Shown: piece by piece, positions 788 to 64,000 of the stretch | Layout: each line of letters starts with the position of its first letter | How positions within the stretch are numbered: the stretch's first letter is position 1 | NCBI GenBank assembly: GCA_025330725.1 | Contig: JAIWND010000013.1 | Location: 186,001 to 250,000, forward strand | Source: Chlamydoabsidia padenii | Lineage: Eukaryota > Mucoromycota > Mucoromycetes > Mucorales > Cunninghamellaceae | Reading direction: 5' to 3' | DNA: 64,000 bases | Notes under the pieces: generated by a model | Seen by the model: the letters and a program-made list of their open reading frames with translations, nothing else | Databases searched by the model: none | Told to the model about the DNA's origin: nothing | Made by a program: the position numbers and the translations under genes

Positions 788-798
788 CGGGATTTGAA
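788..798 (+). promoter_or_regulatory. CGG-NN-TTTGAA element
   Basis: Exact CGGGATTTGAA, 186 bases upstream of the 6-phosphofructo-2-kinase ATG. One of about 38 related 11-mers in this window; function unknown. Confidence 0.5.
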
Positions 799-1859
799 AT
801 TTGAAGGGGGTCGGTTCCTCCGACGCATGATCTCGCACCCAATCAATGTGAACAACAGTGCAACCTACCGGTGATTTAATTCGACTCTTCTAAACCTCCG
901 GTCTTCCAAGATTTCTCAGGAGCTAAGAAGTATATGTAACTGAATACTTTTCTCAATTGGCAATAGACTAATCATATCCCGAAAAAAAGTGTGTGAAGAT
1001 TGAGCATCCCAGAATGATAAAGTCAAGAATACTTGACGGGGGAGGAGTGCTAGCTTCCCCTTATCCCCACACTCAACTTCCTTTGTCTTGCTGGGTTCCT
1101 GATTTCTTTAATTACTTCTTTTCTCTATCTAATTGGCCATCATTCTATGGACTCTACTAGTACCTTTTTCTTTATGTCAAAGAAAACAGAAGATGACAAC
1201 CTGATTAGGTTTAGTATCCCATCCGTCTGTCCTTAAAGCTCAAAAAAGGCCATGAACTCCGATACGATAAAACTAATTTGAAACACCGCACTGTAGAAAA
1301 AGTATTATACTGAGATCAGTATTGAAAATACACTTGTTTAGTTTGATAATCCAAAAAGAAGTTATATATATATAACAGAACAGCCTCATGTTACCTATTT
1401 TATAGACAACGAACACACATTGTTATTTGCCTTTTTACTTGTTCACATAATGCTTGATGATTCTTTCCTTCTTTTATTCCTTGTTAGTCCTTTATTTGGT
1501 TCTGGTAGGAATTAGCTTCAAAAGGGAAAAGCCCGTCAACATTGATTGATCAATACATCACTGTTGCCTTGTTTTGTCAAGATAGGATCTCGTGAAAATC
1601 GGGGTTTAAATTGATCCAGGGCAACCTTACCCTTGACAACTATGTGTGTCTGGTAAAACATTGGAACAAGACTCAGCAAGGTCCCAACGAATCAATGGCC
1701 TTTTTACTTTTGATCATGACGTTATGAAGTTTAGTTTCCGATCCAGTTACTTGAAAAGGTCTTTTTAGTGCATTTACCTTAAAGCTGTAGACACAAACCT
1801 TAAAAAAAGAAGAAATTGGGGGGGAGAGCAAATGCCATCCCACAAACCTTGTTTTGTTT

Positions 1860-1870
1860 TTCAAAACCCG
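1860..1870 (-). promoter_or_regulatory. CGG-NN-TTTGAA element
   Basis: TTCAAAACCCG, 110 bases upstream of the sugar transporter ATG. A second copy, CGGGGTTTAAA on the plus strand, lies further upstream at 1600-1610. Confidence 0.5.
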
Positions 1871-1979
1871 CTCGCTGTACCTATATAATGTCCAAGTTCC
1901 TTATTTCCACACTCTTCTTTTCTTTACTTTTTTTCTTTCTCTTCTTTGATCCTTTTTTTCTTTGCTATATCTTCATATC

Positions 1980-3928: not shown

Positions 3929-5100
3929 AAAAAGGGGAACATATTCGGACCAAGGCGACGGGTGTTATTGGACTCTATTGACTAGAATACTGGAACCATC
4001 GTCATTCTCTTTACTGTAGTTACTCTTTTTATTTTTATTTTATTTTACTCTTTATCTTTAGTTTACGTAGACATTTTATTATCTTTATATCCCCCCTTCC
4101 CCTCCCACATCTATCTTTTTATTAACTAATGTGTATTTCTTATCATCTGTTTTGCTTTACGCACTGTACTTTTTACTTGACAATAAACAACTCGTCTTTT
4201 TTACTTTTTACTAATATCATATATATGTGATCGTGTTACCCCCCCCCCCAAAAAAAAGTGGATCGAAATGGTCCCGCGGGGTTTTGTGTGGGGGTGTTTC
4301 AGTTTTTACACCGAACAATGATATAAAAAGTCGGGTACTGTATTGTCATCTAGAACCGAAAAAAAAAAGAAACAACGTGCATGTATTGGATGAACAAATC
4401 ACAAGACCTACTGTACGAACTCCTTTTTCTCCGGTGCAATTATGATGAACAATGGCAGAAACATTCCTACTTGACCGTATACGGCATTTTAAATGTTCTA
4501 ATAAAAGAAATAAACTTTTTTTTTTTGTCTGACCCGGTGAAATGTTTTCGTTCTTTTCCTGCCTGTACTGTACAAGTAGTATTGTACTGACTTTTTATAT
4601 GAAAAAATGTCAGCCAATACATCCCGTTGCATGAGGTTTCGATAAGGTTTAGGATCCGTTTATTCCCCTTTCTCCCCCCAATGCAGGCGGTGTTTGAAAA
4701 CGGACGATTGGTTGATCTTTTTTTTTTTTTCTTTGTTCCTGGGTCCATATTATCTTCCCCGCGAAATATTCTTTTGTTTCGTTAAAAAAGTGTTTTCCCC
4801 ATATTTCCCCACCCCTTCTTTCTCCATTATGAGTGGTAGTTGCACCATTATAGTGATACCACATGTCTTACTGTTGTTGATTAGTCATTTATAAAATGAT
4901 TTATTTTTTCGATCTTTGCGAGTGTACGATCGGGGTTTCATTTTTTAAAAAAATTTCATGTGAGTGTCTCCACCACTTTGAATTCAATTAAGATGAATAA
5001 TTGACATGCCATATGACATGATCTGTTGACACGGAATTTTATGTTAATGAGATTTTTATTGATAAATTTTAAAGAATGGTAGCTATAACTAAAACTCTAT
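3929..5100. other. Intergenic, low-complexity
   Basis: 3' UTR and spacer after the sugar transporter. It contains a C10/A8 homopolymer pair near 4240-4257, several A- and T-runs and no open frame with gene-like composition or splice structure. No gene seen. Confidence 0.5.
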
Positions 5101-5105
5101 ATTTT

Positions 5106-5830
5106 GTATTAATATAGCCCTGGAAATCCAAATTCATCCAAAGGTACTTGATCACTAGGTGTTTGCATATTCTAAACCGACAACAGTCTTCTTTTGACCA
5201 CAAGGTACAAACTTGATTGATTCAAAATAGGCAAGAGTCGGGGACTTGACACTAGGAGAGTGATCAAAGATAAATAGTATTCCATCAGTCCAGACCAAGT
5301 ACGTTGATTATTCCAATCTTGAGTTGAGTAGGATCCATTAGGTTTGATTCCAAAGACAAGAGATCATCAAAAGAGAGGATGAGGGATATTCCTTCAGGAT
5401 CTTGATGATTTCCATGATATGGTAGACGGGCTTGCTTTACCAGTCCTTCTGATTTCAAACTAGGCAAGTATGACACAAAAGAAGTAAGTACCTGATTCCC
5501 TTGACCCCCCCCACACACACACCTTCAGCACTTTGTCGTGATTAACTGACCTTGACAGTTCACCATTGTCGATTTGTCTGTTATCCTTATTATTGATATC
5601 ATCGAGCACAAGATAATTATGTACTATAACTAGACCCTCTTCACCTACTGATTTAAGCTTTCCCAAGAATATCACAAGTCAGTTAATAATTGTCGTTACC
5701 TGATTCCACCGAGCTTGTTGAATATGTTATGTTGTTAATAGAGAGAGGGGAGAGCAATTTCGCCCATCGTAGATTTGTGTGGCAGTGTAAGTATCATAGC
5801 AAAGTTGTCTGTCCAAACCTACTGCTTACA
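5106..5830 (-). pseudogene. Coding-like remnant broken across frames
   Basis: The minus strand here has protein-like stretches that do not connect in one frame. The best C-terminal part runs from about 5305 to 5162 (YLVWTDGILFIFDH, then KFVPCGQKKTVVGLEYANT) and stops at a TAG, but a +1 shift at that point gives PSDQVPLDEFGFPGLY followed by TAA at 5106. Upstream, 5460-5320 reads KSEGLVKQARLPYHGNHQDP in another frame, and 5670-5525 reads LVLDDINNKDNRQIDNGELS before a possible GT-AG intron (about 5519-5460). At least two frame breaks cannot be explained by plausible introns. The protein family was not recognised. Two promoter-type elements lie upstream at 6277 and 6403, so it may once have been a functional gene. 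Confidence 0.4.
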
Positions 5831-6744
5831 CCATTATATCGTCCACTCATATGGAGGAGGTCTGTTGATAAAATAGGAAGGTAGTAGGAATAGTCAGAAA
5901 TTCAAAGAGTTAGTTATAATGGAGGGGGATATTGTGCTAAGGTTGTTATACGATAGATAATATAAAGACAATAAGAAGATCAAGTAGACTTTATGGATGG
6001 ATGTAATATTCTAGGTAAAAGTGAAAGTGAATGAGAAGAAGGAGGAAGGAGAAAAGTAGAGGAAAGAATTAAAACGGGCCTGTCGGAATTTGAATAATAC
6101 CAAATCCATATACAGGTGTTTATCCTCTATAACCGTCATTGTATATTCACACTGTTACCTATATTATATCCATTCTAGTATATTTATTCCTATCAAAAGC
6201 ATTACATATAATAGGTAGTATTTCAAATTGCCTTTCTCCATTCAGGGAATCGGCGTCGGCAAACGGATAAAGCAGGCGGGATTTGAATTGTGTACAATCA
6301 GGGGGTAGGTGAGACCGCTTGTATGGGCAGGGGGGGGGCAGTCTGTCGAGTCAAGCCAAATTCATACCCTCAGGGCTAGTGTTTATAAAGGTCGCGGTTG
6401 TTTTCAAATCCCGGTGTATGCACCCGTCGAACCTTTTTGACCTTTTTCAGTCGACTGGTTCCTATGACATGTTCCACCGAGTTTAAACTTTCCAGTTACA
6501 TAATAACATTACATGAACTGTTTTCACACAAGATCGCTAATGGTCTTTTGCATTGATCGGAATTTTAAAACGGATCAAATGTAAAACCGCGATATCCTGC
6601 CACATCACATTTTACAAATAAGGAACAAGATTGTTGGATCAAGTTTATTAATTTAAGAGATGATAATACAAAGTTAACAGAGGATTGTTTCAGACGATAG
6701 CTAGAGATATAAAATAAAAAGACTAATCTACAAAGTATTCAATT
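5831..6744. other. Intergenic with two CGG-NN-TTTGAA elements
   Basis: No gene seen. CGGGATTTGAA at 6277-6287 and TTCAAATCCCG at 6403-6413 face each other about 115 bases apart, a promoter-like arrangement. The nearest starting unit is the broken minus-strand remnant at 5106-5830; the SH3 gene ends, rather than starts, on the other side. Confidence 0.45.
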
Positions 6745-9241: not shown

Positions 9242-9415
9242 TATTCACAAGTATAAGATACAAGAGTGTAGAGGTCTGTGGTGCGTCAAAGTTAGAAGAA
9301 GAAAAGGAAGAAAAGAAAAAAGCGTCTTCTATTTTATTTCCTGGCTGTAATTAAAATTTCCGGCAAAACTTGAAGGTGTACGCTGTCGCCGCACTCCAAA
9401 AATCGGATGAATTTT

Positions 9416-9426
9416 TTCAAATCCCG
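9416..9426 (-). promoter_or_regulatory. CGG-NN-TTTGAA element
   Basis: TTCAAATCCCG in the 279-base divergent promoter between the SH3 adaptor (ATG 175 bases away) and RBM39 (ATG 95 bases away). Confidence 0.55.
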
Positions 9427-9520
9427 CTTTAGGCAACGTCATAACATTTGTTTCCATCCACTTAATATTTTTTTTTTTTTTTTTGTTTCCGTTTTCTCTT
9501 TTAACTAATTAAACCGAAAA

Positions 9521-13390: not shown

Positions 13391-13401
13391 CGGCGTTTGA
13401 A
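13391..13401 (+). promoter_or_regulatory. CGG-NN-TTTGAA element
   Basis: CGGCGTTTGAA, 94 bases upstream of the Elf1 ATG. Confidence 0.55.
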
Positions 13402-13754: not shown

Positions 13755-13765
13755 TTCAAACGCCG
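13755..13765 (-). promoter_or_regulatory. CGG-NN-TTTGAA element
   Basis: TTCAAACGCCG, 75 bases upstream of the snurportin ATG; a mirror image of the copy on the Elf1 side. Confidence 0.55.
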
Positions 13766-15298: not shown

Positions 15299-15309
15299 CG
15301 GGAATTGAA
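15299..15309 (+). promoter_or_regulatory. CGG-NN-TTTGAA-like element
   Basis: CGGGAATTGAA (one mismatch), 130 bases upstream of the uL13 ATG. A further TTTTTAAAAGGCCG string lies at about 15263-15276. Confidence 0.4.
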
Positions 15310-18818: not shown

Positions 18819-19850
18819 TATTATGATAACAATACAATGGGAAGAGTCAATAAAAGAAGAAAGAAAGGAGAAGTCAGGGAAAATCAAAAGGATTAAAAAA
18901 AAAAAAAAAAAAAAAAAAGTCGGCGTTTGAAAAGGAATTGGCTACAAACCCTTTTTCAATGAAAACCCTGTTACTTTAGTAGAAGAAACAAAGCAATGAT
19001 GATTATCATACCCACTTTTTTGTTTATTGTCCATTCTGATGGTAGGAACACAACATGACTCGAAAACCACCATTCTCATTCTTTCTAGAGTCAAAAAAGA
19101 ACCATTCTTTTACACGACTGCATACTTTTATCACATGGGGATATGTCTTGCATAGTATTATTATCCCACTCATTTACACCTGTAGAACATTTTGACATTT
19201 CAAATTCATTATTGCGTATGAGCAACCTTCCAAATTCCATTGTAGGAAATCATCCGGATGGCGGCGGCGGTTGAAAAGTAATTCAGGGCACTTTTTTTTC
19301 AAATCCCGTTCCGAGAGGGTGGGCTTTGAATTAATTATCTTGATCGAAGAGACCCTAAACATGTGCTGCCTTGGATAGAAGAGAACCGATTATGTATGCA
19401 GACAACCTAACGATGCCAATGATAAATGAGAATCACCCCCTATTGTATGACAGAATGACAAAATACCATTAACGTCAAAAGCCCCAGATTTTATTGTTAA
19501 ATTAAAATGATAAAAAAAAAAAAAAAAAGATATGTATATATAGATAGAGTCATAAATCATGTATGTAGATAGAGTAAAACATTAGAAGATGATAAATTGA
19601 TATATATATATAATAGATGGTAGTAATATATAAGGAGATGCCAAAAAAAAAAAAAAACGAAGGAGGAGGGAGGGGATTGAGGAATGTGCATAAACAATGG
19701 GTGATGAAGATGTATACATGTGTGATGGGGTCAAGATCATAACTAATGAGGGTAAGGTGTAAAGATTTACATAAAAAACAGATCGCTACCCCTGAAAAAT
19801 AAAAAATTAAAAAAAGAGCATAAGGTGTTGAGAGAGAGAGAGAGAGAGAG
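18819..19850. other. Upstream region of the coiled-coil gene / velvet 3' side
   Basis: Contains an A20 run at 18897-18918, CGGCGTTTGAA at 18921-18931 and TTCAAATCCCG at 19298-19308, with poly-A and AT-rich tracts near 19513 and 19600. A GGCGG-TTGAAA half-site sits near 19266. No gene seen. Confidence 0.45.
18921..18931 (+). promoter_or_regulatory. CGG-NN-TTTGAA element
   Basis: CGGCGTTTGAA, 103 bases upstream of the coiled-coil protein ATG. Confidence 0.5.
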
Positions 19851-21458: not shown

Positions 21459-23464
21459 AATTGTATATGACCAGAGTAAGATATATAAAAAAAGGATGGT
21501 TTCAGTTCTTTAAGGTGTTAAGAAAGTGGGTGATAAGTTTAGTATTAAAAAAAAGGGGATGGTGGAGGTGGAGGTAATGTATGATATGTGAATGGAAGCA
21601 AGTATATCTAATCTAATAATGATATGAATAAGTGTGTGCTACTACTAGACCCCCCAAAAAGTGATATATGTATATATATATAAAAGAAAAGGAACGGAAA
21701 GAAAGAGGAATAAAAAAAAAAAGGACAAAAACGGTTTTATAGATTCAACCATTTCGGAGTTTGAAGTAATTTCTGCAGCTCGAGGTCTCCCGATATACTC
21801 TATATATAAAAATATCATCCGTGAACATTGATCCCTAATCTACCCATCCCAATGTTTGTTACAATTTGTAAAGAATGGAATTAATGCTCTTCACGAATGT
21901 ATGCAAAAAAAAAAAGTGGGTCCCTGATCCTCAACTTGTTCTTTTACCCAATAAGAATGCAAGCAGTAGGACAAAAAATGTGCTAGCTGTGATTCACCTG
22001 TGGAGTTCAAAAGTGTGGTTTTGTTTCTTTTTATAAACCTGTATTTGAAGAAATATCTCGGCGACCCAAATAGATGAAACATACGCGAACAAGGTACCTT
22101 TCCCTTTTTTTTGTTGTTTATGTACTTATTATCCCATTGGTCGGATGTGAATCTTGTTACTGCTGATGCACAAAAAAAAAAAAAAAAAAAAAAAAAAAAG
22201 ATGAGTGAATTCCCTGTTTTTGTAACATGTCAAAGACCAAGTGATGTTTTGTTCTTGGAGTGTGTTGCTTTTTTTTTTTTGGCTCATTGTTACACATACA
22301 TAGAGTGCACGCATGCACTTGTTTACCCTGTTTAACCCAATGCTATGGTACAAAATCATCTGGGGGTGATGAATGAATAACCATGGTAAAAAAAAAAGTC
22401 GTCATCACTATACCATATGTTTCAAATCAGACCGATCTTCCAACCAACCATTCATCATTTGTTAATTATTGTTACAAGCCCTCTTTTTATTATTATTATA
22501 CAAGTCTACATTAAAAACAGGGGGGGGGAGGATTGACTATAAACTAAAAGGAGAATTTGTTCCTATTCCATCGGCGTAATGATTACAAATCAATGTACCC
22601 CCACATCAACAACAATACGACGAGATAACCGGTATATCATATATTTGATCGATCCAATACATGACAGGGGCAGGGAGTATCTATTATAGGTATTCAGATG
22701 TTTTTTCTAAACCTTACCTTCAATGTCAAGTACATCCCCTTGAATTGATGACGATCATCATGGCGTCATATACTGCTACTGTCATTTACCCCAATTCATC
22801 AATTCACATCATTGTTGCTGTCATACATAATACTGGTCGGTTTGGTCATCAGAAGGAGTAATGCCTTGTTAATAATCATTGGACTGGATATCGATAAAAG
22901 GGTGGTTTTCTTGTTGGAGATAGTAACAGAGTCAGTCCAGGTATAGATGTGTTTCTGTTGGTGTTGTCATTGTTGATGTTGCGTTAAAGATGAGAAGCCA
23001 GAGATGTTCCAAGTATGTATAAAGAGTAGTTGGCAATATGGTCAAGATGTAATACAAAAAGTCTTTTCCAAAAGAGACAAGACTTAATGCAAGAGAATGG
23101 CAAGAGATATAAATCTGTAAAGGCGGAAGAAAAGAAAAGAAAGAGAGTCGGCACCATTATTTGGTTTTGTTTGAGAAGAAAAAAAAAAAGCGGGATGTGA
23201 AAAATATCATCAACCAACCATATCAACGGCTTGTTGTATCAGATCGAATGTGGGTAATGAGTCCGATATAAAGTACATAGCCATCATATCCGAATCTGAT
23301 AAAGATGATACCATCACTTGAGATCCCTATCTGATAATGGATCAGGCAATTTGATTGGATGGCGATGTTTAAAAAATTGTGTATACACATATATTTTTTT
23401 TATCAGATTTGGTTTTTTTTTTTCCTTCTCTTTCTTTCTTCCACCAACTGTATATCCTCTCATC
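21459..23464. other. Long intergenic region, no gene seen
   Basis: This 2 kb stretch separates the velvet and phytochelatin-synthase-like starts. It holds CGGAGTTTGAA (21755-21765, 297 bases from the velvet ATG), CGGGATGTGAA (23191-23201, 264 bases from the PCS-like ATG), an A-run of about 29 at 22171-22199 and several T-runs. Open frames are short and low-complexity. A non-coding transcript cannot be ruled out. Confidence 0.45.
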
Positions 23465-24486: not shown

Positions 24487-25032
24487 TTATTATTATTCCC
24501 CTACTCTTTATATATACATACACACATATTCCCCACCTCTTCCCTCTCTCTTTTTTTTTTTTTTTTTTTTTTGTACAATGCCTCTATATACTTTGTTTTA
24601 CTTGAACTCTCTTTATATCCTACTCCCCTTCATTAATTAATTAACTCACACTTGTTTATTACTATCATCACTCATAATAAAGCGACATTCCTTTTGATCA
24701 TCTTTTTTAACTTGAAAGTATTGGTAAAATGGACTCGGCGGGATATGAATATTAATGGGACGGGATTTGAATTGGATTTGGGTTGAGGGAATTGATCTTC
24801 TTGGGGATTTTTTTTGAAATCACAAGAGACCCTCCTCTTTCGACGTCGTATTATTTTTAAAAGGTAGGTAAACTGGATATCGACCTTCCATTCAACAAAT
24901 GGATATAATCAATACTATATCGACACGGAAAATTGGATGGATGGATGGATGGATTGGACTAAAACGACTTTTTTGGATGGATAAAAGGGGACTCGACACA
25001 TTAGATTAATGTAACTAACATTTACTTTGTTT

Positions 25033-25066
<34 letters not shown>

Positions 25067-25984: not shown

Positions 25985-25995
25985 CGGGGTTTAAA
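25985..25995 (+). promoter_or_regulatory. CGG-NN-TTTAAA element
   Basis: CGGGGTTTAAA, 75 bases upstream of the SelW-like ATG. Confidence 0.5.
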
Positions 25996-26069
25996 ACGGG
26001 TCCATCATCTTTTAACCTCGACTTTTTTTTAAAAAAATATCTCTCTCTTCCCTGTAGATATTTGTCAGC

Positions 26070-32034: not shown

Positions 32035-32473
32035 TGTTGTTGTTTTGTTATCTGACGGATTCAGAAAAAGAAGAGAGAGAAGGGCGGAGGAAAAGAAGAG
32101 AAAAAATGAAAAAGTACCTTGGTTTTTAAATCCCGATTTGTTGAAATCCCGATCCACATTAAAGAAGCATGAAACATGATAGTATCGACAAGTTCTTTTA
32201 CGATAGGTAATGCCAAGAAGATAATGGTTTACTTTTCTTTCGTTTCAGACGCTAGAACCAACTTCTCCGTTTCTTTTCATGTGGCACGTGGGCTTCTTCC
32301 TGTATCATATAGACTCATTGTTGGCTTTTTCTTCTATTAGAAACATCTTTCATCGAATGGATCGTCGGGTTCGGTAACACCAAATCAAATATCCTTTCAA
32401 ATCTCATATATAAAGAGAAAAAAAAAACTCATCCTGTTTTCTTTACGCTTAAACAAAAAAAAAAACAGGCATT
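32035..32473. other. Divergent promoter, TFIIIC / Ca2+ exchanger
   Basis: Contains two elements in tandem (TTTAAATCCCG at 32125-32135 and TTGAAATCCCG at 32141-32151), 91 and 107 bases from the TFIIIC ATG. A degenerate TTCAAATCTC near 32395 is on the exchanger side. No gene seen. Confidence 0.5.
32125..32151 (-). promoter_or_regulatory. Tandem CGG-NN-TTTGAA-type elements
   Basis: Two copies (TTTAAATCCCGA and TTGAAATCCCGA) in the same orientation, 16 bases start to start, upstream of the TFIIIC subunit. Confidence 0.55.
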
Positions 32474-34304
32474 ATGATTACCGAAACTCAACCACTTTTA
32501 GGAGGAGCTGAAAGAAGACAAAAATTGGACTTTTGGACTTCATTCAAAATATCTGCCCTGTCCTCCAAATTCAATATCCTATTGATCTTTGTCCCTATTG
32601 CTATTTTTGCTTCCTTCACTGATGCTTCCGCCCCTGTAGTATTTTCGCTAAACTTTATAGCCATTATTCCTCTTGCCAAGTTGCTTGGCTTTGGTAAGTC
32701 ATCCCAACTACTTTGCCTTTTTTTTCTTTCTTACTTGAACTCATTGTCTTTTATAGCTACGGAGGAAATTGCCCTTCGATGTGGTAGCACGGTGGGATCT
32801 GTAAGTGGAAAAATCTTCTGCATTAATCGGGGTTTAAACCTTTCTTTTTTATTCTAGTTGTTAAATGCAACGTTTGGTAATGCTGTTGAACTTATTCTCG
32901 GTGTGGTTGCTTTAAACAAAGGACTTATTCGGGTTGTTCAAGGTAAGTTGATGATTGAGCTTGAACCATAATGACTTAATTTTTTTGGGGGGCGCCATAG
33001 CATCTGTGCTTGGATCTATCTTATCAAATCTTCTTTTGGTAAGTCATATGAAAGGAAGAAATGGACTTTTATTTAATAAAATATCTATAGGTTCTCGGTT
33101 TTTGCTTTTTGCTCGGTGGTGCGGGTCGTAGTGAACAAACTTTTAACATCACAGGTAAAAACAAGAAAGGGAAACTCGATTGGTCTTAACCATATTTTAA
33201 ATCCCGATAGCTGCCCAGACATCCACCTCTCTTCTTGCTTTGACCACCCTATCCTTATTGATTCCTGCTGCCTTTAGTGCCACTGCTCAAACCAAATCAG
33301 ATGCTGAGTTGGGTATTTTGAATCTAAGTCATGGAACAGCACTGATTCTTCTATTGGTGTATGTCTTGTTTTTGATCTTCCAGGTACGTCAAACGATAAA
33401 GGGGAAGTGTAATTTACTTGATGTTTCATACTAACATATTTATGTATCCCTGTAGCTCAAAACACATTCTCATTTGGTAAGTTTATTATGATATTAATGA
33501 AGAAAGGGACTTAGTATATAATACATAGTACGAAGACGAAGAAGATGAAGAAGAACAACCTACGACCTCTCTTTCTTTCTCTGTGTTCACGTAAGTAATG
33601 ATGTCAAGGTAATTTATGATTCTTATTTTACTTGATTTTATAGTCTTGTTGTTGTTGCCGGTATTGTCTCCCTTCATGCAGAATTCCTCGTTGGGGCGTA
33701 AGTGCATTGATGACCCCTGAATGTCGGGATTTGAAATTTCAACTTTCTTTTTCTTTTTTAGAATCGAAGGTGTGGTAGAAAGCTGGGGAATCGACGAAAC
33801 ATTTGTTGGTATCATCCTTTTACCTATTGTTGGAAAGTAAGTTCAAACAGTATAACATGATGGACCATGTACTAACGGCTCAATATGATAGTGCGGCCGA
33901 ACATGTCAGTTCTGTTACTTTTGCCATGAAAAACAAAATGAATCTCTCGGTCGGCATCGCCGTCTCATCCTCATTACAGATCGGATTACTCGTCACACCT
34001 GTATTGGTGATTGCAGGGTGGGCTATTGGACAACCCATGACTCTCTTCTTTGAGGATTTCGAAACTGTAATCTTATTCTCGAGTGTATTGATCGTCAATT
34101 ATCTGATCCAAGATGGTCGATCAAATTGGTTAGAAGGTGTTCTACTTTTGGTAAGTTTATTACTGCTATGTATAGAAAAGCATGACTTACAACGTGTTTT
34201 TTGTTTATACATAGTCATCCTATGCCATCGTCGCATTGTCCTTTTATTGCCATCCCACAGCATCTGGAGATGATAGCGGCGTTCCAAATATTGTTGCATT
34301 GTGA
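32474..34304 (+). CDS. Vacuolar Ca2+/H+ exchanger (CAX/VCX1 type)
   Basis: Multi-pass antiporter of 394 aa that loads the vacuole with Ca2+. Twelve exons: 32474-32693, 32757-32800, 32858-32942, 33001-33038, 33091-33154, 33211-33383, 33456-33476, 33529-33590, 33644-33697, 33762-33836, 33892-34150 and 34215-34304. Both alpha repeats of the CaCA family are visible: [19 protein letters not shown] (first) and [20 protein letters not shown] (second), with the acidic loop [11 protein letters not shown] between halves. A short N-terminal cytosolic tail (about 40 residues) precedes the first TM segment ([16 protein letters not shown]). One exon is only 21 bases. Three of its introns carry copies of the CGG-NN-TTTGAA element. 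Confidence 0.93.
33725..33735 (+). promoter_or_regulatory. Intronic CGG-NN-TTTGAA element
   Basis: Exact CGGGATTTGAA inside intron 9 of the Ca2+/H+ exchanger. Further intronic copies are CGGGGTTTAAA at 32828-32838 (intron 2) and TTTAAATCCCG at 33196-33206 (intron 5, ending four bases before the acceptor). Confidence 0.45.
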
Positions 34305-34909
34305 ATTGATTTTTCGTTGTTTATAAATAAATGATCAACTTGTTGCCCCTCCTCCTATTTTTGTATGGGGCTTTTTCACGTTACCCTGAATTTTGATAAG
34401 GTTAATACCGAAACCTTGATAATTAAGCTGTAATCTTTTTTTCGCATGTGACCGAGCATATATACATATGCTTTGACATGGACACTTTGACTGCATCGAC
34501 TTACTCCTGCATTTTAGTTACACAAGCACCCTGTATTGAAACGCCGCTAAAGCTGGTTTGCTCCAACCCACTTGATCATTTCTCTATTATAAACCTGTAT
34601 TCTATTTTTCATTTGATTTAAAAACTTGTAGAGTTAAGCGATGTGTCATAGTTTTTGAAACACAAAAGTAAATTGAATGTGTCTGGGACATGTGTGCTGA
34701 GAGAATGGATATTTGTGTTACAAAGAAGCGTGGTAGGGTGGCCTCATGTAATTTCAAATGCCGCATGTAATTTTTTGTTCTCGTTTCCCTTTTTTTTTTT
34801 TTTTTCTTTCTCGCACTCTCTCACTCTCTCTCTCTCTCTCTCTCTTTTTCTTTTTATTTCTATACTTTACTTTTATACAAACATATCTATTCCCTCTTCT
34901 TTGATTAGC
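34305..34909. other. Intergenic / leader of the next gene
   Basis: Contains AATAAAT about 20 bases after the exchanger stop and a long CT/T-rich tract (34792-34860) before the next ATG. No element of the 11-mer type was found close to the start. No gene seen. Confidence 0.5.
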
Positions 34910-40911: not shown

Positions 40912-40922
40912 TTCAAATCCCG
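40912..40922 (-). promoter_or_regulatory. CGG-NN-TTTGAA element
   Basis: TTCAAATCCCG, 151 bases upstream of the POM152 ATG, in the 319-base spacer to eL14, which otherwise holds nothing gene-like. Confidence 0.5.
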
Positions 40923-41898: not shown

Positions 41899-42253
41899 GG
41901 TTGATATAGATAAGAGTCAAAGAAAGAGAAGGAAATCCAATCCAATGTGGTTCTTCCAGATGAAGTCAATTTCAAACCCAGGAAATAATTTAAACGCCGT
42001 CCTGTGGAATTGCGGGATAGAGCCCCTGAAACAAGAAACATACAACCATGCATTACAGTTTATTTGATATATAATCAAATTAAAAGATTTTCTTTATTAA
42101 TGACATTTAAAAGGGAAGCACAAAGTAATATAAAAAAAAAAAAGAAGTGTGGGTGTGTGTCAAATTAAGATGCAATAAAAAAAGGGAGGCAGACTTGAAT
42201 ATGTAGATGAGTGTATAATAAATGATGGTAGTAAATGACAAGGAGGAAGATTT
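41899..42253. other. Upstream region of eL14 / 3' side of chitin synthase
   Basis: Contains TTTAAACGCCG at 41989-41999, 91 bases from the eL14 ATG, and A-rich 3' UTR sequence of the chitin synthase. No gene seen. Confidence 0.5.
41989..41999 (-). promoter_or_regulatory. CGG-NN-TTTAAA element
   Basis: TTTAAACGCCG, 91 bases upstream of the eL14 ATG. Confidence 0.5.
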
Positions 42254-47135: not shown

Positions 47136-47146
47136 CGGGATTTAAA
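47136..47146 (+). promoter_or_regulatory. CGG-NN-TTTAAA element
   Basis: CGGGATTTAAA, 71 bases upstream of the 6-phosphogluconolactonase ATG. Confidence 0.55.
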
Positions 47147-47698
47147 ACTATGTTGGGGGTGGGGTGGGGGGTTAGACCAACCCTTCTCCTTCTGGCATAA
47201 ACTGGGTAAGTCCAGCATGGAGAGCAGTGATGTTACTCACGAACATTATTAAATGATCTGTTTGATGGCTGTGGCAGTATTAATGATTTTGTTGCCATGT
47301 CGAATCAAATCCCCCGTTGAATGTGATTCTGTAAAGAGCACAATGGCGGGATTTGAATCATAGTCCTTCTTATGACATCCACTTAACAGGGCTAACGGAA
47401 GCACCAACAAGAGATTGTAAGGTTTAAGGATTGATGTAACAAAACCATCTCATGGAAAGAGTGACCTGTCAAAGAGAGGCATTTTACTTTATGGGTGAGA
47501 ATCTGAGTTTCGGTCAACATTCATGCTTTTTTTTAAGGCATGCTCCGGACAAGTGGATCAAATTGTATAAAAAAGTGTTAGATCAGCACATATGGATAAG
47601 CTGGGTGGATTAGGCTTGGTTTGATTAACGCCCACCATGAAATCCATATGAGCATCATACCTTTTTACATTATCAGAGCTTGAACAAATTTAGAACGG

Positions 47699-47709
47699 CG
47701 GGATTTCAA
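47699..47709 (+). promoter_or_regulatory. CGG-NN-TTTCAA element
   Basis: CGGGATTTCAA preceded by GG, 112 bases upstream of the lipase ATG. An exact CGGGATTTGAA copy is at 47347-47357. Confidence 0.5.
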
Positions 47710-51620: not shown

Positions 51621-52022
51621 AACTGGTTGTAAATGTAGTTAGGTGTTATAGATAGGAACGTGATAAATGGGAGAGGGATATATACAAAAAAAAAAAAAAA
51701 AGAAGAAGAAGAAAGTAAGGAGAAAGAAAAGGGAAAAAAAGAAGGCCAAGCCAAAATTATTATTTTTAACCACGACTGACGTTGACAAATGAAATTTGAT
51801 TGGGTAAAAAAAATCGGCATTTGAAAAACAGGCGGGATTTGAATTGCATGAAAAAGAAATACACAAACGATTCAAAATGGACCTTTGTTTTTGTTAGATA
51901 GTCAGACCATAAAAAGAAGTGATCTTTATACACTACATTTTTATTATTATAATGGGAAGGGGATAAAAAGTGTATGTAATATGGTATGTATGTTTGGGTG
52001 TAAAAGGATATGTCTATGCAGC
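51621..52022. other. Upstream region of the TM protein
   Basis: Contains CGGCATTTGAA (51815-51825) and CGGGATTTGAA (51833-51843), 18 bases start to start, about 195-215 bases before the ATG at 51620, plus an A16 run near 51687. No gene seen. Confidence 0.5.
51815..51843 (+). promoter_or_regulatory. Tandem CGG-NN-TTTGAA elements
   Basis: Two same-orientation copies, spaced almost like the tandem pair upstream of the TFIIIC gene, upstream of the signal-peptide/PPSY protein. Confidence 0.55.
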
Positions 52023-53716: not shown

Positions 53717-54591
53717 GGTTTTAAACGTATACACTAGTTTAAAAGAAGAGAGAAAAAAAAAAAAAAAAGAGGAAGGAAGAGAAAGAGGGGAGCAAAAAAG
53801 GAAACTCTCAACTTTATAAAATAAAAAAAGTGCGGTCTTGTGCTGCATACTTGTTTGTGCAACAATGAAGACATGGTCTTTTCAGACAATCTATCATTCC
53901 ATCATGCTTATTTTATCTCCATTATGTTGAATAGTTTATCACTGTGAAAGAACTTGCCTTTGAAAAGCGGGCATGAAGTTTATCATTGCTCTTTTATGAA
54001 CCCTACTTTTTTCAATACCAGCGCATGAATGAACATTTCATATCCCGACTAGCCTCCTCTTATTTTCCCGCACTTGATAAAAATATATAGCCCTGGGTTT
54101 TTCAAATGCCGAAGAGCAGTCAAAAAAAAATTTCTTCGTTCTTTTTCATATAAAGACACCGTCCCTTTCTCTCTTTTTCCTTCTTCTTTATTAACTTCAA
54201 GTACGATGAAATAGGTAGGTAAATATCCATATTGAAACTTTTGTGTCATTGTATTGTGTAAATGATGAATTGCAGCTGGCACCAGTCCGATTAAGACGTG
54301 ATGGATAGCTTAAACTCCCGGATGACATATACGCAACAACCGTCATCCCTGATAATACACACAATACAATGATGCTGACCTAAAACATATCATCAATTAC
54401 AAAAGATGTATTAACTTTTTGTTTGATTAGAATCTTTGGCCCAATAGGTGTTTTTTAGAATAGCATTTTTAGAATAGCGGCATTTTAAAATAAAAGTACT
54501 TTGTCAAATTTTTATATCGTCTTTTTATTTTGTCTTTCCTTTACTTTCTCTGTTTTTTTTTTTTTGTTATATCTATTTTAACTTATTGTCA
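53717..54591. other. Divergent spacer with an orphan promoter-like block
   Basis: An 875-base head-to-head spacer between F-box/WD40 and DUF1308. Elements occur at 54037-54047 (TTCATATCCCG), 54101-54111 (TTCAAATGCCG) and 54478-54489 (CGGCATTTTAAA, 103 bases from the DUF1308 ATG). The 54101 copy is followed by CATATAAAG (54149) and a CT-rich leader to an ATG at 54204, but that frame stops after two codons (ATG AAA TAG), so no protein gene is called. Confidence 0.4.
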
Positions 54592-56112: not shown

Positions 56113-56508
56113 AATTAGAACTTGGAATGTTTAGAATTAGATTAGATTTGTTATAGTGTAATTGTAATAAAACATGTTGTTTGATGTTGACTCGAGCACT
56201 GGGTGTCACAAGAGTGGGCAATGCTTCACATGACACACACTCATCCTTTGCTTTTTTTTTTCTTCTTCTTCTTTGCTTTCCATATTGAAAGAAATCTCGG
56301 AGAGGCTCAATACCATGGTCCCATGATACACAGCTCCATACTTGATGACATTATGGCTTTTGATCTGGAATCGTAATGTTTTTTTTTTTAGCTTGCAGTT
56401 TTACAGGATCACTTTTAAATCCCGATGCACGCTTTTAATAATTCCTTTCCCCCCCCCCACCAACCTTCTTTCTTTCTTTCTTTTGTTTGTTTAATATCAA
56501 AATACATT
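56113..56508. other. Intergenic with promoter element
   Basis: DUF1308 3' UTR (AATAAAAC at about 56166) and the promoter of the following same-strand gene, with TTTAAATCCCG at 56414-56424 and a CTTT-rich leader. No gene seen. Confidence 0.5.
56414..56424 (-). promoter_or_regulatory. CGG-NN-TTTAAA element
   Basis: TTTAAATCCCG, 85 bases upstream of the mitochondrial orphan's ATG. Confidence 0.5.
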
Positions 56509-59603: not shown

Positions 59604-60091
59604 TATTCAAAGTGAATCAATAAAAAGAAAAAGAAAAGAAGAAAGGAAAAAAGAGAGGGCCTTTTTAATGTCAAAAAAACAGTATTGAAATTCCGACTCC
59701 ACCTAATGAATTCCGAAAAGGAAATGGTACCAAAAATGACAGATTTTCATTCCTGATCATTAATAAAGTAAAAGCATCCGAGTTTATTCAACCTGACTTT
59801 TTTTTTTTTTTTTTTTCTCACAGTATGGTTTGTGGCAGGCTATTCCCACCGCATGCGATCACCTAGAACAATGGCGGGGTGTGAATGCTTTTGAACATGC
59901 ATAAATGAGCCGATCTCTTACTATGTGAGCAGCGCAAAAGGAGATAACCAGTTTCCTTTTATGGCGGACAAAAGAAAACAGTGGTCCTAGACTCCTCTCA
60001 GTTTTACAATCAGGAGTGACAAGGCATAAAAATAAGCAAAGTCCTCTATTTTCTGCCTTTCTCTCTCTCCCTTGTCATAATAACTAACAAT
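59604..60091. other. Divergent promoter, MCT1 / seven-TM protein
   Basis: Contains TTGAAATTCCG (59685-59695, 82 bases from the MCT1 ATG) and CGGGGTGTGAA (59875-59885, 207 bases from the seven-TM ATG), a T17 run near 59800 and a CT-rich leader at 60055-60075. No gene seen. Confidence 0.5.
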
Positions 60092-61297
60092 ATGAATCAA
60101 ACCGACGAATACGATCGATTTATACATTGTATCGGGAACGTCCAAGAAACCTATCGGTTTATGGAATCACAATATACTTTGGTGTACATGAGTATTTGTT
60201 TGACGTGCACGGTATGGCAAGTTCTCACTGCGGTCGGACTTGTTTGGAAATCAAGAAAATGGCTCCATATGGCGGTTCTTGCGAATGTCTGTATGGCGTT
60301 TTTTGTCATCCTATGTAGTTTGTTGAGCCCTTTGACTTCGATCAGTTGTGATTTTGTAAGTCCGTACATCGATTTTTTTTTTTTCAAGACTCAAGTTTTT
60401 TTTTTTTTTTTTTTTCCGGGGTAGAGATTCTGGGTTTCTATCATCTGTGTAGATCTTGGCGGCTGTTGCATTCAATCCATCTTGCTCTACAAAGCTTATA
60501 TCTGCAATAATCGATCTAAAGGTTTGCTCGTGTTTGGCTCTATCATCAATGCTGGTTACATTGCTCTGATATTCCTTTATGCCACTGTGGGCAGGGTGGA
60601 GTCTCATCGGGATTTCATTGGCAATTGTGTGGTAAGTCGGGTTTTAAAATTCAGGGGCTGTAATTCATGCAAACTTTCTTTTTTCTTTTTCCTGTATGAT
60701 AGCTCGAGAATTGTAAGTAATCAGGCTTAACTAGAGTGAGAACAAAATACTGACATGTCATAATAGTAGAATGGCCTGCCCTTGCGAAACTAGGACTGGA
60801 CATCACTAGCAATCTATTCCTCTCCTTTGCCTTTATATCGGTCATCCGTCGACATTATCGCATGTTTGGAAATGATATGCATAAAATTCTTTTTTCAAAC
60901 AGCATGGTTTTCTCGTAAGAGTTCCTTGATTGTTATTGTTTTGTTATCTCATTTTTCATCTCATTTAGTATCGGGGTGATTGCATCTAATATCATCACTG
61001 CTATTCTCATTTCCTGTCGTGCTATGGGCGGGCTATCAGCCGATCTGTATTCTTTTGATTGTAAGTAGTCTCAGTTTGGAAACTCCGACATCTAATCCAA
61101 GGCATTGAACAATAGGGGTAATCACTGGGTATCTACTTATCAAGCAGTTCTCGATGGATAACAAGACACAAGACGAAGAGGATGAGATTTCCCAGGTACA
61201 GACAACCACCAGCAGTATTCTTTCTGCCCATTTATCCGATTTACCTTCCCATCAACCTAATCATATTAATCATTATAATCATTGGTCAAAAGAGTAA
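60092..61297 (+). CDS. Seven-transmembrane protein, family not recognised
   Basis: A 300-aa integral membrane protein in exons 60092-60355, 60425-60631, 60703-60712 (10 bases), 60767-60914, 60969-61060 and 61116-61297. Seven hydrophobic segments can be counted: LVYMSICLTCTVWQVLTAVG, HMAVLANVCMAFFVILCSLL, FWVSIICVDLGGCCIQSILL, GLLVFGSIINAGYIALIFLY, ITSNLFLSFAFISVI, IGVIASNIITAILISC and a short WVITGYLLI. The N-terminus is short and the C-terminus (about 50 residues) is acidic/Ser/Thr-rich and presumably cytosolic. The layout is GPCR-like, but no class-specific motif such as DRY or NPxxY was seen. Other fungal seven-TM sensor families are equally possible. Confidence 0.75.
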
Positions 61298-61514
61298 ATA
61301 TAATCCTCACCAATCCTGTTACACACATACACACACACATTAATGATCTATAACGAAGCGTCTTTTATTATAAAGAAGATATATATAAATATATATAAAT
61401 ATATAATGATAAAAAGATGACATGGACAAGAGTAATACACAAAAGGATCTACATAATTAAAATAAATATCAACAGGGAGAGGAAGGGGAGAGGGGAATAC
61501 GACTATATCTACAT
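61298..61514. other. Convergent 3' spacer
   Basis: Short tail-to-tail spacer with CA and ATATAAAT repeats. No gene seen. Confidence 0.5.
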
Positions 61515-63556
61515 CTATTCTTCAGTAATCATATCCAGAGATGATCTTGATGCCGTGTTTCCATTATCCAAAGGATTTGTATTATGTTGTTTCTGCTTTT
61601 GTTTTTGTTTTTGTTGACTACGGATATCAGTGCTGTGTGTAGATGTTGTTGTTGTCTGTGTTGGTTCCAGTAATTTCAAAATTCGCTGTATGTCTTCTTG
61701 ATTTTGTCGAGCAATGGTCATCAAAGATTGTAGTTGCGCAAATAGAGCTTCATCCCCGGTATCCAACAAGTTGAAAGGTTGATCATTGCCATTGATGGTG
61801 TTCATGCTATTTGATCTGGGTCGGAGGGAAGATAGTCCTAGTGGGTCATCAAATGCTACCGAGGGTCGTCGTAGTGAGGTGGTTGAAGTAGGTTGAGCAG
61901 GTGTTTCTGTTGGTGATCCATCTACTGTTTGAGATGAAGATTGTAATTGTTCCAAGTATTGTCGTCGTCGCATCGATTCCCAGACAATCGTAAAGTTTCG
62001 TCCCACAATGATCGAAGGTAGAGCAATCAACTACATTAGTATAAAGGTGATTAGTTCAATGTTTTTCTTTACATCTTGCCAAAGTGTCTTACTAAAACTC
62101 CAAACATCATGGCCGGGAATGTCACCAGTTTACCAATAAAAGTGGTTGGTACCATATCACCTAGTATCAGCCCCCCCCCCACCCACCCAGTAAGATTTCA
62201 TAAGTAAATCCGTTACTTTTTTTTTTTTTTTCTTCCTTCTTTAGACTTACCATAGCCAGTAGTTGTAATCGTAACCAGGACAAACCAAAAGGCAGCAGGA
62301 ATACTATCAAACGCACTATAGAGAAAGAGTCAGTCATCTGAAGCCCTTTTTCCGATATACATACCTTGGATTTCCACCGGGGTCAACAAATGTTTCCAGT
62401 GTTTCGTCCCAAGTACCGCGTTCCGCAAAATAAAGTAATGTGGAGAATAAAACTACACAAGTCACCAAAAAGAAGAAGAGAGCTGAGAGTGCATCCCCTG
62501 ATCGACGTAAAGCCACCACCATTACTTCGATCGTCATGATAATCGCATTGGAGTACTTGTAGGTCTTGAAAAGACGTAGCAGTCGGAAGAGGCGCAAGAT
62601 CGTAAATCGGAATTCGTAAGTCTATAAAGAAAAATAAAAAAAAGAGTTAGGGAAGTCATTGGTAGTGTAAAAGAGAGAGGGTTCTTACCGTATCCCGTTG
62701 AGCAATCACTTCAATATAGAATGGTATGATAGATATAAAATCAATGATTGAGATAGGAGCTACAAAAAAAAAAAAAAAAGAGGGGGAGGATTAGTAAAAA
62801 CCAACACCAATATTCCATCAAGTCAGTACTCACCAATAACAAACTTCTTTAACATTTGTAAAGAGTCAGAATGAGCAAACAACCGGAGGATATATTCGAG
62901 TGTAAAGAGTGCCACCATAGTCGATTCCAAATGAAACCTAAAGCAAAAATAATCTAGTTAGTTCCTAGTTCAACAACCTCCCTCCCCCTTATATATATAT
63001 ATATATATATACATAGTTCCCCTCCAGTTTACCAAACTTTATTACTTTCCGCTGATCGGAAGGCAGGAATCGTTTCAATCGTGGTCATCACCGCACTGGA
63101 GACAATTAAAAACGATACTACGACGTTTGTCCAGAATGCCGCGTGACTACTTGAGGGTTCTTCCAGTAGCAAGTATAAGGATCGTTTAAATCGGTTTTTA
63201 ATGTCATTTTCAGGATACTGTGGTTGTACCGCTTCGTCATCTTCAGTTAAATGCCCCGTTCCGTCACCACCCCTTGTCAACGCCGCCACCGATTGCCAGG
63301 CATCAGCTATTTGTCCACCTAAACGTTGATATCCCCCTTGTTGTTGTTGTTGTTGTTGCCGATACCTTTTCCTTCGTTTTTGTCGTTGTCGTTGTTTTTT
63401 CAGAGTGGCAGTGTCCGAGTCTGAAGAAGACGATAAGGATGGTTGAAGAGTAGAGCTGGTCGGTTCTAATTCCAAGACTTCGTGTTGACCTTGTAAGGGT
63501 TCTTCTTCATCATATGGACCATTGTTATGATGAGGAGTGGAGCGGAAGAGACCCAT
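61515..63556 (-). CDS. Voltage-gated (Kv-type) potassium channel
   Basis: A 534-aa six-TM K+ channel in exons 63556-63033, 62937-62834, 62759-62689, 62621-62365, 62315-62251, 62160-62093 and 62030-61515. S1 (about 147-170, FWTNVVVSFLIVSSAVMTTI), S2 (STMVALFTLEYILRLFA), S3 (PISIIDFISIIPFYIEVIA), an S4 with basic residues every third position (RFTILRLFRLLRLFKTYK), S5 (LSALFFFLVTCVVLFSTLLYF), the pore helix and selectivity filter TTTGYGD (about 336-342), and S6 (PAMMFGVLLIALPSIIVG) are all present. The N-terminus is hydrophilic with a polyGln stretch and has no obvious T1 tetramerisation domain. The long C-tail contains a helical LFAQLQSLMTIARQNQEDIQ segment and a KQ repeat. Confidence 0.92.
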
Positions 63557-64000
63557 CAATCAATAAAGATGAGAAAGAATAAAAGAGAGAGAGAGAGGGG
63601 TTTATGTTTTCGCACCGTAAAATATTTTTTCTTTTCTACCTCTAACTTCGGTGTTTGAAATACTCCACCCTTACCCCATTACTGCTTGCTGGTAAGAGTG
63701 ATACTGCACTGACACCCTACTGGTTTGGTGGTACACAAAAGACATCAAAAATCCATACAACAATAGTTTACAATCATGTGATAGTTTATTAGTTGAATTA
63801 ATATAAATGGTAGCTGGAGTAGTTTTGTCAAAAAGTACAGCCAACCACACAACATGGTGGAATCCATCGATCAAAAAAAAAAAAAAAAAAAAAAAAGCAT
63901 AGGTGCAAACGTTATTTAAGATATGTATATATAAGAGGGAAGAGAGTAAGGGGCATATATTGTGGCATAACAGTAGATCATATTTACATAAACGGCAGAA
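63557..64000. other. Upstream region of the K+ channel, right edge
   Basis: Contains CGGTGTTTGAA at 63649-63659 (93 bases from the channel ATG), a GA-rich 5' leader, an A22 run near 63875 and AT-rich sequence to the edge. No gene is seen before the window ends. Confidence 0.5.
63649..63659 (+). promoter_or_regulatory. CGG-NN-TTTGAA element
   Basis: CGGTGTTTGAA, 93 bases upstream of the K+ channel ATG. Confidence 0.45.

What the first reader, a model, noticed from the sequence alone, without database searches (positions are those of the whole stretch)
788..63659. A recurrent 11-base element, CGG-NN-TTTGAA, sits upstream of most genes in the window
I located about 32 intergenic copies of CGG-NN-TTYRAA or a one-mismatch form (for example 788, 1860, 6277, 6403, 9416, 13391, 13755, 18921, 19298, 24761, 25985, 32125, 32141, 40912, 41989, 47136, 47347, 47699, 51815, 51833, 54101, 56414, 59685, 63649). 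They occur in both orientations. About 23 of 28 start codons have one 70-300 bases upstream, with many between 71 and 112. With equal base frequencies a strict form would be expected only about twice in 64 kb. Ribosomal, mitochondrial, nuclear-pore, enzyme and channel genes all carry it, so it is more like a general promoter element than a regulon site. TTTGAA/TTTAAA next to a CGG-rich half resembles the animal CDE/CHR cell-cycle element read by LIN54-type CXC proteins, but the two-base spacing differs and this link is speculative.
Basis: partly seen in the sequence, partly recalled or inferred. Interest (0 to 1): 0.78.

Follow-up and report, generated by a model that had tools for sequence, protein, structure and literature searches.

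The report
Promoter element spaced by whole nucleosomes
In a mould of the order Mucorales, one short DNA element lies within 600 bases upstream of 114 of 128 predicted genes in a 314,000-base sample, and pairs of its copies are eleven times rarer about 95 bases apart than about 190 bases apart, as if nucleosomes lay between them, so it is likely the docking site of one still unknown protein predicted to keep most promoters open.

Summary
CGGNNTTYRAA occurs 30 times in the window against 2.5 in shuffles; CGGNNTTTGAA occurs 8,216 times in the 34.2-Mb genome against 157 for the reversed pattern. The spacer is strictly two bases; the full motif is about RKCGGGATTTGAAAW. With a gene finder written here, 114 of 128 predicted genes have a site within 600 bp upstream, peaking 60-120 bp before the ATG, in both orientations.

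New here: copies are spaced on a nucleosome scale. Same-orientation pairs genome-wide, per 31-bp bin: 93 at 11-41 bp, 11 at 81-111, 126 at 176-206, 35 at 276-306, 63 at 311-341, 87 at 356-386.

The CDE/CHR-LIN54 idea is not supported: wrong spacing, wrong gene set, and no LIN54 or LIN9 match although E2F/DP is found.

Best reading: a general-regulatory-factor-type site that likely holds promoters free of nucleosomes. The binding protein, occupancy and presence in relatives are untested.

The parts
788..798 (+). element, exact; 185 bp upstream of predicted ATG 602 (-)
1600..1610 (+). element, exact; 369 bp upstream of predicted ATG 1980 (+)
1860..1870 (-). element, exact; 109 bp upstream of predicted ATG 1980 (+), sugar transporter gene
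4688..4698 (+). element, exact; in a long convergent region (4020-6744)
6084..6094 (+). element, exact; same long convergent region
6277..6287 (+). element, exact; same long convergent region
6403..6413 (-). element, exact; same long convergent region
9416..9426 (-). element, exact; 94 bp before predicted ATG 9521 (+), RBM39-like gene; falls inside the doubtful first exon of the opposite model 6745-9442
13391..13401 (+). element, exact; 93 bp upstream of predicted ATG 13297 (-)
13755..13765 (-). element, exact; 74 bp upstream of predicted ATG 13840 (+)
15299..15309 (+). element, one mismatch (CGGGAATTGAA, 20.1 bits); 129 bp upstream of predicted ATG 15439 (+)
18921..18931 (+). element, exact; 102 bp upstream of predicted ATG 18818 (-)
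19298..19308 (-). element, exact; 479 bp upstream of predicted ATG 18818 (-)
21755..21765 (+). element, exact; 296 bp upstream of predicted ATG 21458 (-), velvet-factor gene
23191..23201 (+). element, one mismatch (CGGGATGTGAA, 18.4 bits); 263 bp upstream of predicted ATG 23465 (+), phytochelatin synthase part of a merged model
24739..24749 (+). element, one mismatch (CGGGATATGAA); between the phytochelatin-synthase and ribosomal L22 parts of the merged model
24761..24771 (+). element, exact; same place, 22 bp from the previous copy
25985..25995 (+). element, exact; between the ribosomal L22 and Rdx parts of the merged model
32125..32135 (-). element, exact; 90 bp upstream of predicted ATG 32034 (-), TPR-protein gene
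32141..32151 (-). element, TTTCAA form; 106 bp upstream of predicted ATG 32034 (-), 16 bp from the previous copy
32828..32838 (+). element, exact; in intron 2 of the exchanger gene 32474-34304
33196..33206 (-). element, exact; in intron 5 of the same gene, 368 bp on
33725..33735 (+). element, exact; in intron 9 of the same gene, 529 bp on
34536..34546 (-). element, TTTCAA form; 158 bp upstream of predicted ATG 34705 (+)
34753..34763 (-). element, exact; just inside the gene model that starts at 34705
40912..40922 (-). element, exact; 150 bp upstream of predicted ATG 40761 (-), POM152 nucleoporin gene
41989..41999 (-). element, exact; 179 bp upstream of predicted ATG 41809 (-)
47136..47146 (+). 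element, exact; 70 bp upstream of predicted ATG 47065 (-), 6-phosphogluconolactonase gene
47347..47357 (+). element, exact; 281 bp upstream of predicted ATG 47065 (-), 211 bp from the previous copy
47699..47709 (+). element, TTTCAA form; 111 bp upstream of predicted ATG 47821 (+), lipase gene
51815..51825 (+). element, exact; 194 bp upstream of predicted ATG 51620 (-)
51833..51843 (+). element, exact; 212 bp upstream of predicted ATG 51620 (-), 18 bp from the previous copy
54101..54111 (-). element, exact; 384 bp upstream of predicted ATG 53716 (-) and 480 bp upstream of ATG 54592 (+)
54478..54488 (+). element, TTTTAA form (17.1 bits); 103 bp upstream of predicted ATG 54592 (+), DUF1308 gene
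56414..56424 (-). element, exact; 84 bp upstream of predicted ATG 56509 (+)
59685..59695 (-). element, TTTCAA form; 81 bp upstream of predicted ATG 59603 (-)
60638..60648 (+). element, exact; intergenic, 1034 bp upstream of predicted ATG 59603 (-)
63649..63659 (+). element, exact; 92 bp upstream of predicted ATG 63556 (-)

Best explanation
The element, about RKCGGGATTTGAAAW, lies within 600 bp upstream of 114 of 128 predicted genes, most often 60-120 bp before the predicted start codon, and is likely the binding site of one abundant general regulatory factor that would keep the promoter free of nucleosomes and phase the arrays beside it. Shown by the calls: the strict CGG-2-TTTGAA layout; the genome-wide excess; the position peak; use in both orientations; nearby runs of A or T; a pyrimidine tract on the gene side only; and the spacing of copies, which are close together (11-41 bp) or about 180-270 or 330-390 bp apart, with few at 36-150 bp and fewer near 300 bp. 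Inferred: a single protein binds (the commonest tight pair is 14 bp apart, about the motif's length); the pyrimidine tract marks the start site; the bound protein is a barrier against which nucleosomes line up; copies that would fall under a nucleosome set by a stronger neighbour are lost, which would leave the spacing pattern in the sequence. Unknown: the protein and its family.
For: Genome count 8,216 against 157 reversed. Gap exactly 2: 77 copies, at most 5 at any other gap from 0 to 11. Top non-repetitive gapped word pair in 93.5 kb of intergenic DNA: TTCA-N3-CCCG 71 against 1.9 expected. 297 matrix sites against 29.6 in order-3 Markov-resampled sequence; 114 of 128 genes within 600 bp, 97 of 128 within 300 bp. 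Sites in 31 of 33 divergent and 52 of 58 tandem regions but 8 of 28 convergent regions under 1 kb. Matrix trained on C1 only: 12 of 24 window genes have a site at 50-125 bp (control 3.4) and 7 of 19 genes in C2 (control 2.5). Orientation 43 to 35; CTTTC 50 on the gene side, 5 pointing away on the back side of 59 one-sided promoters. Poly-A/T near sites 765 against 500. Pairs 36-150 bp apart: 10 against 38.5 expected; fraction 10 of 50 against a lowest 0.38 among 54 control 6-mers. Genome-wide pairs per 31-bp bin 93, 11, 126, 35, 63, 87.
Against: No nucleosome, start-site or binding data exist here. In hold-out C2 the broad test was weak (10 of 19 genes within 300 bp, control 7.6, 156 of 1000 controls reach it). 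Copies also occur in convergent regions (39 sites; even short ones hold about 0.9 per kb, ten times the resampled background of 29.6 per 314 kb) and in introns (26 sites). 14 of 128 genes lack a site within 600 bp. In the sample the dips in spacing are clear but the peaks are modest (210-240 bp 14 against 8.2, 20 of 500 simulations reach it), and in regions over 1 kb the peaks are not significant; the periodogram is weak. The pyrimidine tract is as clear when genes are aligned on the ATG, so its distance from the element is not independent evidence. Whole-genome spacing was measured for same-orientation pairs only, in six bins chosen after seeing the sample.
Confidence: 0.66

Rival explanations
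1. A general activator site without a chromatin role: the element recruits transcription machinery at most promoters, and the spacing of copies reflects promoter geometry or duplications rather than nucleosomes.
For: Most pairs lie in promoter regions; about 240-bp tandem repeat units carry the element; peaks in the sample are modest.
Against: The lack of pairs at 36-150 bp also holds in non-divergent regions (5 against 21.9 expected) and in regions over 1 kb (4 against 22.3). It is not seen for 54 control words in the same regions. 91 clusters remain among 100 listed pairs at 176-206 bp after a crude collapse of similar ones.
Confidence: 0.17
2. A site for a pathway or condition-specific transcription factor with a large regulon, rather than a general promoter element.
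For: 14 of 128 predicted genes lack a site within 600 bp; no expression data were available.
Against: Genes carrying it include a ribosomal protein, nucleoporin, RNA-binding protein, transporters, lipase, velvet factor and sugar-phosphate enzyme, and nearly nine in ten predicted genes have it.
Confidence: 0.07
3. A fungal CDE/CHR element read by a LIN54-type CXC protein.
For: TTTGAA and TTTAAA next to a CGG half; E2F/DP-type domains are encoded in the genome.
Against: Gap of 2 and not 4; fixed direction and not the symmetric TTYRAA. No CXC match by family, protein or DNA signature, and no LIN9 match; the one DNA-signature hit carries an in-frame stop. Present at most predicted genes.
Confidence: 0.04
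4. Remnants of a dispersed repeat or mobile element that carries the motif.
For: 22 of 297 sites have similar flanks elsewhere in the sample, including tandem units of about 240 bp.
Against: 275 of 297 sites have no such flank similarity; single-base preference ends within about three bases of the core; the motif tolerates graded changes at some positions and none at others.
Confidence: 0.02
5. TFIIIC B-box (tRNA-type) sites, because TTCAAATCCCG resembles a tRNA T-arm.
For: The commonest form read on the other strand resembles the B-box consensus (recalled).
Against: The base before TTC is G in only 5% of sites, the C at position 61 is met in 68%, and TTTAAA forms are common; no tRNA was found in the window or in L021.
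Confidence: 0.01

Closest known systems
Yeast general regulatory factor sites (Reb1, Abf1, Rap1, Cbf1)
   Same: Short sites in promoters of unrelated genes, near poly-A/T; such factors contribute to nucleosome-depleted regions and can act as barriers (passages of PMC2897762 and PMC11069190). Different fungal lineages use different such factors (PMC2897762 passages).
   Different: The sequence is not the Reb1 core CGGGTAA, the Abf1 site or the Cbf1 site CACGTG (the first two recalled). One element fronts 114 of 128 predicted genes, and copy spacing shows a nucleosome-scale pattern. Binding and nucleosome depletion are untested here.
Animal CDE/CHR element (LIN54, DREAM/MuvB)
   Same: TTTGAA or TTTAAA next to a G+C-rich half.
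   Different: Gap 2 instead of 4, fixed direction, present at most genes, and no LIN54 or LIN9 match found.
CGG-triplet sites of fungal Zn2Cys6 proteins
   Same: Invariant CGG, often preceded by T or G; such specificity is recalled, not tested.
   Different: Known sites are usually paired CGG triplets (recalled); here there is one CGG and an A/T-rich half at a fixed distance.
[quoted passage not shown]
   Same: A promoter-linked feature with nucleosome-scale periodicity (passages of PMC12695648 and PMC13297926).
   Different: That is a base modification at ApT (VATB) or AAAACA contexts (passages of PMC11258239); here it is a 14-15 bp sequence motif. Any link is untested.

Membership tests
CDE/CHR (LIN54/MuvB) | CHR of the form TTYRAA, symmetric in direction | tested here: not met
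   TTTGAA 77, TTTAAA 35 against TTCGAA 4, TTCAAA 2 with CGG on the left; published form from passages of PMC4974476
CDE/CHR (LIN54/MuvB) | CDE four bases upstream of the CHR | tested here: not met
   gap 2: 77 copies; gap 4: 3 copies; published spacing from passages
CDE/CHR (LIN54/MuvB) | a LIN54-type CXC protein and LIN9 in the genome | tested here: inconclusive
   no match with PF03638, a CXC consensus, a CXC DNA signature or PF06584; E2F/DP found 6 times by the same tool; the tool warns that an empty answer alone does not prove absence
CDE/CHR (LIN54/MuvB) | confined to cell-cycle genes | tested here: not met
   114 of 128 predicted genes
General regulatory factor site | sites in proximal promoters of many unrelated genes | tested here: met
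   114 of 128 genes within 600 bp; peak 60-120 bp; varied Pfam families
General regulatory factor site | acts in either orientation | tested here: met
   43 to 35 among 78 proximal pairs; position only, no assay
General regulatory factor site | site is nucleosome-depleted with phased nucleosomes beside it | tested here: inconclusive
   copy spacing fits; no nucleosome map available
General regulatory factor site | bound by an abundant sequence-specific protein | not testable with these tools
   no binding data
TATA/Inr-type core promoter element | fixed orientation towards the gene | tested here: not met
   43 to 35 among 78 proximal pairs
TFIIIC B-box | G before TTC, C56 and C61 (recalled rules) | tested here: not met
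   G 5%, C61 68%, TTTAAA forms common
Dispersed repeat | shared flanking sequence among copies | tested here: not met
   22 of 297 sites have similar flanks

The most novel reading that the evidence does not exclude
A single, still unidentified DNA-binding protein sets the nucleosome lattice of nearly the whole gene set of this fungus, and selection has pruned its sites so that the genome sequence itself records the nucleosome repeat: copies lie side by side within one gap or whole nucleosomes apart. This would be a one-factor promoter system in place of the multi-factor repertoire known from yeasts.
Probability: 0.4. Interest if true: 0.87.

Novelty: new variant of a known kind. Interest (0 to 1): 0.76.

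Why it matters
My searches found little on promoter grammar in Mucorales. One element in front of about nine in ten predicted genes would give a direct handle on how these fungi open promoters, a ready bait for identifying the factor, and a design rule for expression constructs in this group. The copy-spacing pattern also offers a sequence-only way to see nucleosome phasing, testable in any related genome before a chromatin experiment is done.

Tried and rejected
LIN54/CHR: three ways of looking for a CXC gene and one for LIN9 gave nothing usable. The single DNA-signature hit (L034) carries an in-frame stop, so I set it aside; the reversed control pattern also hit twice. Human LIN54 shows the signature in both its CXC repeats (alignment), so the signature is a fair probe.

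tRNA B-box: considered because TTCAAATCCCG looks like a T-arm; rejected on three positions.

Rfam: nothing in the window at the gathering threshold nor in four loci with the 240-bp unit up to E 0.1.

Repeat origin: 63 of 297 sites had similar flanks with low-complexity filtering off and 22 of 297 with it on. I used the latter and dropped those 22 before the spacing tests, leaving 275 sites, 210 of them intergenic.

Literature: four exact strings of the element were searched (26 papers, listing only, none opened; several concern tRNA, and no title is a fungal promoter study). Broader searches are (listings). I found no report of the motif, but most subscription papers are not held, and the Rhizopus microsporus chromatin study described in PMC13297926 did not turn up. 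Of PMC11258239, PMC4974476, PMC5716687, PMC12695648, PMC2897762, PMC11069190 and PMC13297926 I saw only passages returned by 'find'.

Could not do: identify the protein; look at relatives (none held for this genome); fetch a further hold-out stretch.

Coding and intron hits partly reflect my own gene finder: model 23465-27483 merges three genes. Starts near 9442 look wrong by eye.

Full report
WHAT THE WINDOW IS. The 64-kb window is positions 186001-250000 of contig C5 of a 34.2-Mb assembly in 95 contigs. Among proteins with a named organism, its 6-phosphogluconolactonase is nearest to Halteromyces radiatus (80% identity over 82% of the query) and Absidia cylindrospora (77% over 80%); one JGI protein without an organism name is at 85%. 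This puts it in the Mucorales, near Absidia. G+C of the window is 39%.

THE OBSERVATION. All 24 coordinates given carry the element, 21 of 24 exactly. CGGNNTTYRAA occurs 30 times against 2.5 in shuffles. Over the whole genome CGGNNTTTGAA occurs 8,216 times; the same pattern read backwards occurs 157 times. The gap between CGG and TTTGAA is exactly two: in the window plus 200 kb there are 77 copies with gap 2 and at most 5 with any other gap from 0 to 11. From 112 copies, and then from 297 matrix matches at about 10% false discovery, the full site reads R-(G/T)-CGG-G-A-TTT-(G/A)-AA-(A/T)-W. Beyond about three bases on either side there is little shared sequence. 22 of 297 sites have similar flanks elsewhere in the sample; the other 275 do not. 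Among gapped word pairs in 93.5 kb of intergenic DNA it is the strongest that is not a simple repeat (TTCA-N3-CCCG, 71 against 1.9 expected).

WHERE IT LIES. No annotation was available, so I wrote and self-trained a splice-aware gene finder: 128 genes in 314 kb (window, C1:200001-400000, C2:300001-350000). It is imperfect: one window model merges a phytochelatin-synthase, a ribosomal L22/L17e and an Rdx gene. Even so, 114 of 128 genes have a site within 600 bp upstream and 97 of 128 within 300 bp, with a peak at 60-120 bp and one site closer than 40. Sites per kb are 2.78 in divergent, 2.58 in tandem and 1.82 in convergent regions, 0.58 in introns and 0.18 in coding sequence; resampled sequence gives 29.6 sites in 314 kb, about 0.09 per kb. 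Sites occur in 31 of 33 divergent, 52 of 58 tandem and 14 of 34 convergent regions; of convergent regions shorter than 1 kb 8 of 28 have one (about 0.9 sites per kb, still ten times the resampled background), and all 6 longer ones do, perhaps because the long ones hide missed genes. With a matrix from 82 exact C1 sites alone, the 50-125 bp excess held in the window (12 of 24 genes, control 3.4, reached by 0 of 1000 controls) and in C2 (7 of 19, control 2.5, 9 of 1000). The 600-bp test was also positive (21 of 24, control 14.8; 15 of 19, control 11.0, 38 of 1000). The 300-bp test was not significant in C2 (10 of 19, control 7.6, 156 of 1000). C2 was outside the training of the gene model; the window was not.

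PROMOTER ARCHITECTURE. In 78 element-gene pairs aligned on the element, the gene side has a strongly pyrimidine-rich stretch 50-80 bp away (T+C 0.73-0.79, G 0.05-0.08) that the back side lacks; in 59 promoters with no other start codon within 500 bp behind, CTTTC occurs 50 times on the gene side and 5 times pointing away on the back side. The tract is about as clear when genes are aligned on the ATG (T+C 0.73-0.76 at 50 to 21 bp upstream), so its distance from the element is partly set by the choice of close pairs. Element orientation is mixed (43 to 35). So the element occurs in either orientation and direction is set by something else, presumably the tract, which I take as the start region (inferred). 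Runs of A or T are enriched within 60 bp of the element (AAAAAA/TTTTTT 765 against 500 expected).

NUCLEOSOME-SCALE SPACING. After dropping the 22 repeat-family sites, pairs of intergenic sites 36-150 bp apart number 10 against 38.5 expected from random placement in the same regions. The deficit also holds outside divergent regions (5 against 21.9) and in regions over 1 kb (4 against 22.3). Pairs at 12-36 bp are in excess (20 against 9.2); so, less strongly, are 210-240 bp (14 against 8.2) and 350-400 bp (17 against 10.8); 270-300 bp is low (2 against 7.4). In regions over 1 kb the excesses alone are not significant. Of pairs at 36-264 bp, 10 of 50 are shorter than 150 bp; among 54 control 6-mers in the same regions the lowest such fraction is 0.38 and the median 0.57. 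I then tested the whole genome with gapped patterns (TTCAAANNCCG followed by TTYAAANNCCG, same orientation, 31 gap values each). Start-to-start distances gave 93 pairs at 11-41 bp, 11 at 81-111, 126 at 176-206, 35 at 276-306, 63 at 311-341 and 87 at 356-386. Within bins the counts fall towards 306 and are higher from 326 on. Of the 100 pairs listed at 176-206 bp, 91 clusters remain after a crude collapse of similar ones; 26 of the 126 were not listed. The sample periodogram peaks at 155-170 bp, with modest power; about 165 bp is the yeast nucleosome repeat (recalled). Tight pairs favour exactly 14 bp (19 of 93) and 22-23 bp (13 of 93), the former close to the length of the motif.

MECHANISM. 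The simplest reading is a protein that binds the element and holds a nucleosome-free gap, like the yeast general regulatory factors (passages of PMC2897762 and PMC11069190). A second copy can share the gap or sit in the next gap, one or two nucleosomes on; a copy beneath a positioned nucleosome would be useless and be lost. Copies inside genes are more frequent in introns than in coding sequence, where coding constraint is absent; in the exchanger gene three exact copies lie 368 and 529 bp apart. Direct proof (occupancy, nucleosome maps, mutants) is lacking.

WHAT IT IS NOT. CDE/CHR-LIN54: spacing, direction, gene set and the protein searches speak against it; the protein searches alone are not conclusive. 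TFIIIC B-box: three positions fail. TATA/Inr: orientation is not fixed. Repeat remnants: no similar flanks in 275 of 297.

NOVELTY. My paper searches found no report of this motif or of a dominant promoter element in Mucorales; these were listings, and the library lacks most subscription papers. I rate it a new variant of a known kind: it would work like a general regulatory factor site, but with a new sequence, an unusual dominance and a spacing pattern visible in the bare sequence. Membership stays open because binding and nucleosome depletion could not be tested.

Noticed in passing
L021:2380-2740, L026 (C1:370600-371500), L017, L013, L029: A repeat family of about 240-bp units, partly in tandem, each unit with the element and then a T-rich tract and a conserved stretch of roughly 150 bases; no Rfam match up to E 0.1 and no consensus fold in a crude alignment of 11 units. 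It could be a multi-copy non-coding RNA gene driven by the element.
   Followed up: partly
flanks of the element in window, C1 and C2; pair listings: A second word, TTCATGC(A), is enriched within 60 bp of the element (TTCATG 37 against 12.4, TCATGC 36 against 12.4), without a fixed distance.
   Followed up: partly
window 32474-34304: Three exact copies of the element lie in introns 2, 5 and 9 of a Na/Ca-exchanger gene, 368 and 529 bp apart.
   Followed up: partly
G000 C7:409295, C56:775491, C19:83438, C67:231154, C1:2062540, C8:577276: Six E2F/DP-type domain matches in this fungal genome, alongside no match for LIN9 or LIN54.
   Followed up: no
promoter-proximal sites in window, C1 and C2: A weak link of orientation with distance: 20 to 10 for the reverse orientation at 40-90 bp and 13 to 8 for the forward one at 110-150 bp (p = 0.05); the 27 pairs at 90-110 bp were left out of that test.
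   Followed up: partly
pairs of the element genome-wide: Tight same-orientation pairs favour start distances of exactly 14 bp (19 of 93) and 22-23 bp (13 of 93).
   Followed up: no
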